In this document: in pieces, positions 10,691-13,402 of the stretch
Layout: the number at the start of each line of letters is the position of its first letter
Position numbering within the stretch: position 1 is the first letter of the stretch
From: a virus
Strand: one strand, 5' to 3'
DNA length: 20,292 nucleotides
Virus record (IMG/VR): IMGVR_UViG_3300047585_000093
Location: 1-20,292 of that record
Program-made: the position numbers and the translations under genes
Notes under the pieces: generated by a model
What the model saw: the letters and a program-made list of their open reading frames with translations, nothing else
The model's database searches: none
What the model was told of the DNA's origin: nothing

Positions 10691-11506
10691 ATGGCCACCT
10701 CAAAGGATGTTGCACAAGGACCGTGGTGGACGCCGACCGCCGAAGTCGAGCGCATGATGCGCGAGTGTCAATCAAGTCTATCCGATACGTGGACACTCGA
10801 CATAAAGGTACTCGAAGGGCTGCTGCACGACTCACTTCTGTGGCGTCAGGACAGACTAAGACAACCGGTCGAGACGACGGCGCCGCAAGCGCCGATCGCC
10901 ACACTCATGGTGGCTGAGGGGTTTGTCACGTGGACTCACCTCAAGGCGCCGGGCCTTCCAAATGGGATGCACGATCTATATTGCGAGCCCGAAGCGGTTG
11001 CACCTTACATGCGCAGGAAAGACGAACCAACTTGGCTAGACGACTATGTCCTGCCCGTAGCTCAGCGAGAGAGCGCCGGGGCACCGGAGGTCGCAGGCTC
11101 AAACCCTGCCGGGCAGGGCTCCAGTGAAGTTAAGCGGCTGCGTGATGTGCTGTGGCACATCCGTCCGTTGCTGCCGTCTACTGGTGTTCAGGCCGTGGAC
11201 GATGTTCTTAGAGGCTCACCGGTGGAACCGGCGGAAGAGCAGACGGTGTGGCGCCCTGTAACGCGTCAACACACGGTCTATGAGTGCCCGTGTAAAGGAC
11301 ATCCCTTCGACTGCTATGGGCATCCGACCAAATGCGGATGCTCCGGGGCGAAAGCCACAGGCCTCCTGATCGTCTCGGCCGAGGAAGCAAAGCAGCCGCT
11401 AGCATTTCGCCACTGGAGCAAGGATTCGATGGTGCCGGTCGAAGGCTGTCACTGTGGCACGTGCGTCGAGGCGAGAGGCAGTGAGAACGGGACACGTGAC
11501 GTATGA
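10691..11506 (+). CDS. 271-residue unknown protein containing a tRNA-like sequence in frame
   Basis: The longest unknown protein in the early operon. The N-terminal part (about 1-120) is a soluble Trp-rich domain. Residues 121-143, including RESAGAPEVAGSNPAG, are encoded by a tRNA-like stretch (11051-11117); peptides of this kind are a well-known sign of translated tRNA sequence. The C-terminal part has a Cys/His cluster (CPCKGHPFDCYGHPTKCGCS) and a later CHCGTC, probably zinc-binding. The frame stays open through the tRNA-like part, so the element was either inserted in frame or the two halves were joined across it. It starts at the ATG directly after the previous stop and ends in an ATGA overlap. 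Function unknown. Confidence 0.65.
   Translation: MATSKDVAQGPWWTPTAEVERMMRECQSSLSDTWTLDIKVLEGLLHDSLLWRQDRLRQPVETTAPQAPIATLMVAEGFVTWTHLKAPGLPNGMHDLYCEPEAVAPYMRRKDEPTWLDDYVLPVAQRESAGAPEVAGSNPAGQGSSEVKRLRDVLWHIRPLLPSTGVQAVDDVLRGSPVEPAEEQTVWRPVTRQHTVYECPCKGHPFDCYGHPTKCGCSGAKATGLLIVSAEEAKQPLAFRHWSKDSMVPVEGCHCGTCVEARGSENGTRDV
11051..11117 (+). tRNA. tRNA-like element with shortened anticodon arm
   Basis: Folding by eye gives a full cloverleaf except for the anticodon arm. Acceptor CTGCCCG (11051-11057) pairs perfectly with CGGGCAG (11110-11116), followed by discriminator G. T8-A9 are present. The D arm is GCTC/GAGC (11060-11074). The anticodon arm is only CCGG-GGCA-CCGG (11076-11087), 12 nt instead of 17, with a 4-base loop. 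The variable loop is AGGTC. The T arm is GCAGG/CCTGC with loop CTCAAAC (11093-11109). With no 7-base anticodon loop it cannot decode normally. CCA is not directly encoded after the discriminator. It lies within a coding frame. Confidence 0.65.
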
Positions 11507-12937: not shown

Positions 12938-13158
12938 CCACCGCCGCAGATTGGTTCGAGGACGAGAGCGAATTCCGCCAGCTCTGCGGCGATGCTCAGT
13001 CCCAGGCGCAGGGTGAATCCTCGCAGGACTTCTCTGCCGAGATGGTCATCAAGGCGAAGGAGCGCGGCCTGACTACCTACCTCAGCCAGAAGCAACTCGA
13101 GTGGCTGTGCAAGCTTGCGGACTGGGATTTACCCAAAAGGCGCGCTCACAATGGATGA
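12934..13158 (+). CDS. Small soluble protein, 74 aa
   Basis: ATG 12934-12936, GGGAG upstream, ATGA overlap with the zinc-ribbon ORF. The N-terminal 40 residues are acidic and Gln-rich. The C-terminal half (KAKERGLTTYLSQKQLEWLC and KLADWDLPKRR) is a helical segment resembling the end of small phage proteins that pack against a zinc domain. No function assigned. Overlaps the Lar-like gene by eight bases. Confidence 0.65.
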   Translation: MTTAADWFEDESEFRQLCGDAQSQAQGESSQDFSAEMVIKAKERGLTTYLSQKQLEWLCKLADWDLPKRRAHNG

Positions 13159-13402
13159 GCAGTTATCAGAATGTCCGTTCTGCGGCGGCCAAGTCGAATT
13201 CCATCAGCATACGGAAGACTGCCGAGACGGATGCCACTACATCGTTTGCAAGGGAAAATGCGGCGGTTTCTTCGATTTCAGCGCCTCGGCAGATCCGAAC
13301 AATGATTGCGAGACGCTGGCTGCGCTGAGAAGCGCTATCGCGAAATTCTGGAATCGACGCGTGTATATAACATACGTCAGCGCAGGTGACACCAATGGAT
13401 GA
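13151..13402 (+). CDS. Lar-like zinc-ribbon protein (restriction alleviation family type)
   Basis: An 83-residue protein from ATG 13151-13153. It has the hallmarks of the Lar family: an N-terminal CPFCGG (residues 8-13), a second pair in YIVCKGKCGG, and a C-terminal helix with AIAKFWNRR, where the family has A-x-x-x-W-N-x-R. Rac-prophage Lar reduces restriction by type I systems; many family members in phages have no tested function. Its place among small unknown early genes fits an anti-host role. Confidence 0.7.
   Translation: MDEQLSECPFCGGQVEFHQHTEDCRDGCHYIVCKGKCGGFFDFSASADPNNDCETLAALRSAIAKFWNRRVYITYVSAGDTNG

What the first reader, a model, noticed from the sequence alone, without database searches (positions are those of the whole stretch)
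11051..11117. tRNA-like element with a cut-down anticodon arm, inside a coding frame
Seen: perfect 7-bp acceptor, 4-bp D and 5-bp T stems, T8-A9, standard variable loop, but only CCGG-GGCA-CCGG where a 17-base anticodon arm should be. Known: peptides such as EVAGSNPAG are a sign of translated tRNA sequence. Inference: the pairing is too good for random decay, so the element could be a captured tRNA kept as an attachment site, an RNase P or aminoacylation mimic, a decoy for host anticodon nucleases, or a recent insertion that left the protein frame open.
Basis: partly seen in the sequence, partly recalled or inferred. Interest (0 to 1): 0.75.

Follow-up and report, generated by a model that had tools for sequence, protein, structure and literature searches.

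The report
tRNA relic inside a phage gene
A phage gene of unknown function carries, in its reading frame, an almost complete transfer-RNA sequence (closest to tRNA-Pro) whose codon-reading arm has been cut to a 12-base hairpin; it is most likely a captured tRNA that decayed into a protein linker, although anticodon-less tRNA-like genes do recur in other phages and may be a small RNA class worth testing.

Summary
Window 11051-11117 (+) is a real tRNA homologue (Rfam RF00005, 46.5 bits, gathering 29, E about 1e-7 to 1e-11). ARAGORN misses it. All 20 pairs of the cloverleaf are intact, but the anticodon arm is 12 nt (CCGG-GGCA-CCGG) instead of 17. It lies in frame (residues 121-143) in ORF 10691-11506, which looks coding on both sides. 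The closest full-length tRNAs include phage tRNA-Pro, which shares the C1-G72 pair. Against a working tRNA: the D-loop is short and lacks GG, T54 is C, base 73 is G, there is no CCA, and the discriminator can pair with the 5' flank. Best reading: a tRNA-Pro-like gene captured by the phage, decayed and read through as a Gly/Pro/Ala-rich linker. No homologue of the protein was found, so age and insertion could not be tested. Comparative scans went further: 54 viral contigs hold tRNA-like genes with shortened anticodon arms, none with shortened D-loops, and one such gene (L020/L045) is 95/97 identical between unrelated flanks. So anticodon-less tRNA-like RNAs probably exist as phage genes. Whether the window copy still acts as one is unproven.

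The parts
11051..11117 (+). tRNA-like element, 67 nt, anticodon arm cut to 12 nt
   Evidence: Rfam RF00005 46.5 bits, gathering 29
11051..11057 (+). acceptor stem 5' strand CTGCCCG (C1)
   Evidence: pairs 7/7 with 11110-11116
11060..11074 (+). D arm GCTC-AGCGAGA-GAGC; 7-nt loop without G18G19
   Evidence: sequence, fold, alignment with class members
11076..11087 (+). residual anticodon arm CCGG-GGCA-CCGG (12 nt instead of 17)
11093..11109 (+). T arm GCAGG-CTCAAAC-CCTGC; position 54 is C
11110..11117 (+). acceptor stem 3' strand CGGGCAG and base 73 (G); no CCA
10691..11506 (+). 271-aa orphan ORF that contains the element in frame (residues 121-143, LPVAQRESAGAPEVAGSNPAGQG); GGAGG upstream of the ATG, overlaps the next ORF at 11503
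   Evidence: no family or homologue

Best explanation
The element is the relic of a captured tRNA gene, most like a phage or bacterial tRNA-Pro (C1-G72). It lost 5 nt of its anticodon arm and drifted in its D- and T-loops, and it was incorporated into an early-region phage gene, either by insertion or by fusion of two neighbouring small genes across a tRNA. It is now translated as a Gly/Pro/Ala/Ser-rich linker between two parts of a 271-aa protein. Shown: tRNA homology, intact stems, shortened arm, loop changes, open coding-like frame. Inferred: origin from tRNA-Pro, loss of tRNA function, linker role, and the order of events. Loss of the elbow contacts (G19, T54), of the anticodon and of a free 3' end would also spare the mRNA from RNase P and tRNase Z cleavage, which fits a tRNA adapted to being read as mRNA (inference).
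For: tRNA covariance score. Among full-length tRNAs looked at, Mycobacterium phage Archie tRNA-Pro(UGG) is closest, 54 of 66 aligned positions. Coding score in the ORF frame about 0.02 on both sides, against -0.2 to -0.4 in the other + frames (the N part directly; the C part by its correctly phased value, 0.018). D-loop and T-loop hallmarks lost relative to similar elements that keep them. Stem extension pairs the discriminator (11048-11050 with 11117-11119, read; fold). tRNA fragments are a known by-product of mobile elements (PMC9897764).
Against: All 20 base pairs are intact although several loop positions changed; neutral decay would be expected to break some (rough estimate of about 3 breaks, p about 0.03, with ascertainment bias). 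Other phages carry similar 12-nt-arm elements as apparently free-standing genes. No relative shows the gene without the element, so insertion itself is not demonstrated.
Confidence: 0.62

Rival explanations
1. The element still works as a non-decoding tRNA-like RNA. A cloverleaf with acceptor, D and T arms and a capped stem in place of the anticodon loop is transcribed within the early operon and binds tRNA-handling proteins (RNase P, a synthetase such as ProRS, or a host anticodon nuclease that it would occupy without being cut).
For: 54 viral contigs with shortened anticodon arms against 0 with shortened D-loops and a normal anticodon arm (pattern checked). 12-nt arms are enriched for C1-G72 (5 of 8 against 1 of 33 distinct viral elements, p 4e-4, post hoc). 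L020 and L045 carry a 97-nt block, 95/97 identical, in unrelated flanks. Acceptor stems covary across the set. The YrlA tRNA-like domain, which the anticodon nuclease does not cut, was proposed as its competitive inhibitor (PMC7790460).
Against: The window copy lost G19, T54, two D-loop bases and a free discriminator, which the other members keep, and it sits inside a coding frame that processing would cut. Acceptor pairing was a selection criterion for the set, so its covariation is partly by construction.
Confidence: 0.2
2. The element is part of an attachment site: host-tRNA sequence kept by the phage for integrase-mediated recombination.
For: tRNA genes are common integration targets (PMC9897764); L087, an early-gene relative with a similar element, encodes a tyrosine-recombinase-like protein 0.65 kb upstream (recognised by eye).
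Against: No integrase found among the window proteins scanned. att identity blocks are normally the uninterrupted 3' part of a tRNA, not a whole tRNA with an internal deletion (own knowledge). The element is inside a coding ORF.
Confidence: 0.07
3. The tRNA sequence is neutral junk in a gene that is itself spurious or broken; the ORF is open by chance in GC-rich DNA.
For: The protein has no homologue and the fold prediction is uninformative (pLDDT 38).
Against: Coding signal in the same frame on both sides, ribosome-binding site and overlap with the next ORF.
Confidence: 0.1

Closest known systems
tRNA-Pro genes of phages (e.g. Mycobacterium phage Archie tRNA-Pro UGG)
   Same: C1-G72, TA GCTC/GAGC D stem, AGGTC, GCAGG/CCTGC T stem; 54 of 66 aligned positions identical
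   Different: 17-nt anticodon arm with TTTGGGA loop, D-loop with GG, T54 (sequence); not in an ORF
tRNA gene fragments and pseudogenes left by mobile elements (PMC9897764)
   Same: non-canonical tRNA sequence on a mobile element
   Different: those described are mostly 3' fragments; here the whole cloverleaf is kept with an internal deletion, in frame in a gene
YrlA / bacterial Y RNAs (tRNA-like domain)
   Same: tRNA-like RNA not cut by an anticodon nuclease, proposed as a competitor of it (PMC7790460)
   Different: no YrlA match in the window; no Y-RNA body
Rickettsia palindromic elements (in-frame RNA-hairpin insertions in genes; own knowledge)
   Same: structured non-coding sequence read in frame in a protein gene
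   Different: repetitive family; here a single copy of tRNA origin, no second tRNA match in the window
L020/L045 phage element (this work)
   Same: C1-G72, 12-nt arm of 4 bp + 4 nt, identical T stem
   Different: loops canonical (AGYYTGGTA, TTCAAAT), outside any predicted ORF of 70 aa or more that spans it, apparently free-standing

Membership tests
canonical tRNA | cloverleaf with 7-bp acceptor, D and T stems | tested here: met
canonical tRNA | 17-nt anticodon arm with 7-nt loop | tested here: not met
   12-nt arm, 4-nt loop
canonical tRNA | G18G19 and T54T55C56 elbow | tested here: not met
   AGCGAGA and CTCAAAC
canonical tRNA | free discriminator and CCA end | tested here: not met
   G73 can pair with 11050; GCT follows it, no CCA
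tRNA-Pro lineage | C1-G72 and closest full-length match tRNA-Pro | tested here: met
   other kinds (tRNA-Arg, Met) are not far behind
tRNA-Pro lineage | A73 and NGG anticodon | tested here: not met
   G73, no anticodon
YrlA Y RNA | Rfam RF02553 match | tested here: not met
tmRNA | ARAGORN / Rfam tmRNA match | tested here: not met
phage attachment site | integrase in the genome and uninterrupted identity with a host tRNA | tested here: inconclusive
   no integrase in the window proteins scanned; host unknown, contig is a fragment
12-nt-arm C1-G72 phage tRNA-like set (defined here) | C1-G72, 12-nt arm, paired acceptor and T stems | tested here: met
12-nt-arm C1-G72 phage tRNA-like set (defined here) | canonical D- and T-loops, free-standing gene | tested here: not met
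   in ORF

The most novel reading that the evidence does not exclude
Phages carry a dispersed class of non-decoding tRNA-like RNAs, tRNA-Pro-like (C1-G72), with the anticodon arm replaced by a 12-nt cap. They act on tRNA-binding proteins rather than in translation, and the window holds a member that doubles as coding sequence.
Probability: 0.17. Interest if true: 0.78.

Novelty: new variant of a known kind. Interest (0 to 1): 0.42.

Why it matters
If it is only a relic, it is a clean example of a structural RNA gene turned into protein-coding sequence in a phage, and a warning that tRNA finders and default Rfam filters miss such elements. If the wider class is functional, phages make tRNA mimics that cannot decode: candidates for decoys of host anticodon nucleases or for RNase P and synthetase titration. 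The conserved L020/L045 element would make that directly testable.

Tried and rejected
Chance hairpins: rejected by the covariance score, although folding energy alone is unremarkable. Insertion with target duplication: no flanking direct repeat. Homologues of the 271-aa protein, whole or in halves: none convincing. Element in related phages: 38 records fetched through the terminase, phrog_1843-family and neighbouring proteins hold only other tRNA matches, none in a homologue of this gene, since no such homologue was found. The sequences of three of those matches were read; one is an ordinary tRNA-Met. AlphaFold of the orphan: uninformative. Link to alphaproteobacterial GNRA-capped tRNA-like genes: arm similar (CCGGA-GNRA-TCCGG), but flanks and T-stems differ, so not claimed. 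In-frame tRNA peptides in other phage proteins: none found, only tRNA genes themselves. Literature searches gave no report of anticodon-arm-reduced phage tRNAs in the open-access set.

Full report
What is there. Window 11051-11117 (+) is CTGCCCG TA GCTC AGCGAGA GAGC G CCGG GGCA CCGG AGGTC GCAGG CTCAAAC CCTGC CGGGCAG G. The Rfam tRNA model matches it over its full length with 46.5 bits (gathering 29), at E 3.9e-9 when 271 bases are searched, 2.9e-7 for the whole window against all Rfam and 6.9e-11 in a search of the record itself. Rfam's default filters and ARAGORN miss it. The predicted RNA fold is the cloverleaf, but energy alone is not unusual (z -1.5). So sequence homology, not stability, is the evidence. 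No other RNA family matches anywhere in the window.

Anatomy. All 20 pairs (7 acceptor, 4 D, 4 anticodon arm, 5 T) are standard. The anticodon arm is 12 nt instead of 17. The D-loop is 7 nt and lacks the usual GG; T54 is C; base 73 is G; no CCA follows. Bases 11048-11050 can pair with 11117-11119, so the discriminator is not free. Such an RNA cannot decode, and its elbow (G19-C56, T54-A58) is weakened.

Coding context. The element is in frame with ORF 10691-11506 (residues 121-143). Codon scores trained on confident genes of the window give about 0.02 in this frame before and after the element, and -0.2 to -0.4 in the other + frames (the C-part value printed there first is mis-phased by one base, and the correct one is the 0.018 printed beside it). 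The ORF has a GGAGG upstream and overlaps the next ORF. It is an orphan: no PHROGs or Pfam match, nothing in INPHARED or IMG/VR peptide scans, and nothing in about 60 related loci. The window is a 20.3-kb IMG/VR fragment with terminase, Erf annealing protein, RusA- and Ref-like nucleases, HNH and Lar-like genes; no integrase was found among the proteins scanned. Relatives by terminase (81% to 27%), by the phrog_1843-family protein and by a neighbouring gene are mosaic. None has the ORF, and the tRNA matches in their records lie elsewhere; of the three whose sequences I read, one is an ordinary tRNA-Met.

Origin. Among full-length tRNAs examined, the closest is phage Archie tRNA-Pro(UGG), 54 of 66 aligned positions, sharing C1-G72, the first four acceptor pairs and the T stem. 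tRNA-Pro is the main bacterial tRNA with C1-G72 (own knowledge). A tRNA-Pro origin is likely, not proven; tRNA-Arg and tRNA-Met matches are not far behind.

Are such elements special? A pattern for canonical D and T arms with an anticodon arm of 7-14 nt hits 54 viral contigs and 31 contigs in a far larger set of prokaryote genomes. The matching control, a D-loop of 1-6 nt with a normal 17-nt arm, hits none, and a wider version of it does match normal tRNAs. So anticodon-arm loss is tolerated, or favoured, while D-loop loss is not seen. That is hard to explain by plain decay, though target sizes differ (about 3 to 1 by my estimate). Of 46 viral elements with good stems, 12-nt arms are enriched for C1-G72: 5 of 8 distinct elements against 1 of 33 (p 4e-4, post hoc). 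Two of these, L020 and L045, share a 97-nt block with 95 identical bases and sharp edges (21 nt upstream, 69-nt element, 7 nt downstream) in otherwise unrelated flanks, with no predicted ORF of 70 aa or more spanning it. This looks like a free-standing, transferred or conserved RNA gene that includes the shortened arm. Acceptor stems in the set pair fully, with changes on both sides at 5 of 7 pairs, while the anticodon arm does not; because acceptor pairing was a selection criterion, this is supportive only. The window element shares the architecture (C1-G72, 12-nt arm, identical T stem) but has lost the loop signatures that the others keep. That is why I read it as a relic rather than a working member.

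Verdict. Observation confirmed; capture of a tRNA sequence supported; present RNA function unproven and, for this copy, less likely than not. The broader set of anticodon-less tRNA-like genes in phages is the more interesting lead, and L020/L045 is the place to test it.

Noticed in passing
L061:1834-1977 (+), L077:7162-7309 (+), L069:2221-2372 (-), L080:3515-3664 (-), L066:5842-5987 (-): Alphaproteobacterial chromosomal tRNA-like genes whose anticodon stem is capped by a GNRA tetraloop (GAAA, GCAA, GCGA, GCAA, GAGA), each directly followed by a second tRNA-like with unrelated anticodons and with conserved flanks (upstream GTGTTCCG, downstream GCGGATACCGCC): looks like an undescribed structured RNA with two tandem tRNA-like domains, intergenic where flanks were checked. 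Strict motif in few of 385 class genomes.
   Followed up: partly
L045:12957-13053 (+) and L020:1110-1206 (-): 97-nt block, 95/97 identical, with a 69-nt tRNA-like that has a 12-nt anticodon arm (CTGA-GACG-TCGG), in phages with otherwise unrelated flanks; candidate free-standing non-decoding tRNA-like RNA gene.
   Followed up: partly
L087:6582-6650 (+): Another tRNA-like with short arm (CCGG-CCGAG-CCGG) and short D-loop, 0.65 kb downstream of a tyrosine-recombinase-like gene, on a phage contig that shares one small early gene with the window.
   Followed up: partly
window 13115-13402 (+): Lar-like restriction-alleviation protein (PHROGs E 2e-8; Pfam Lar_restr_allev just under its cut-off).
   Followed up: no
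L002/L065, L089 and window: The tetraloop GGCA recurs in unrelated shortened anticodon arms (GAG-GGCA-CTC, CCGG-GGCA-CCGG twice); possibly chance or a remnant of tRNA-Ala(GGC)-type loops.
   Followed up: no
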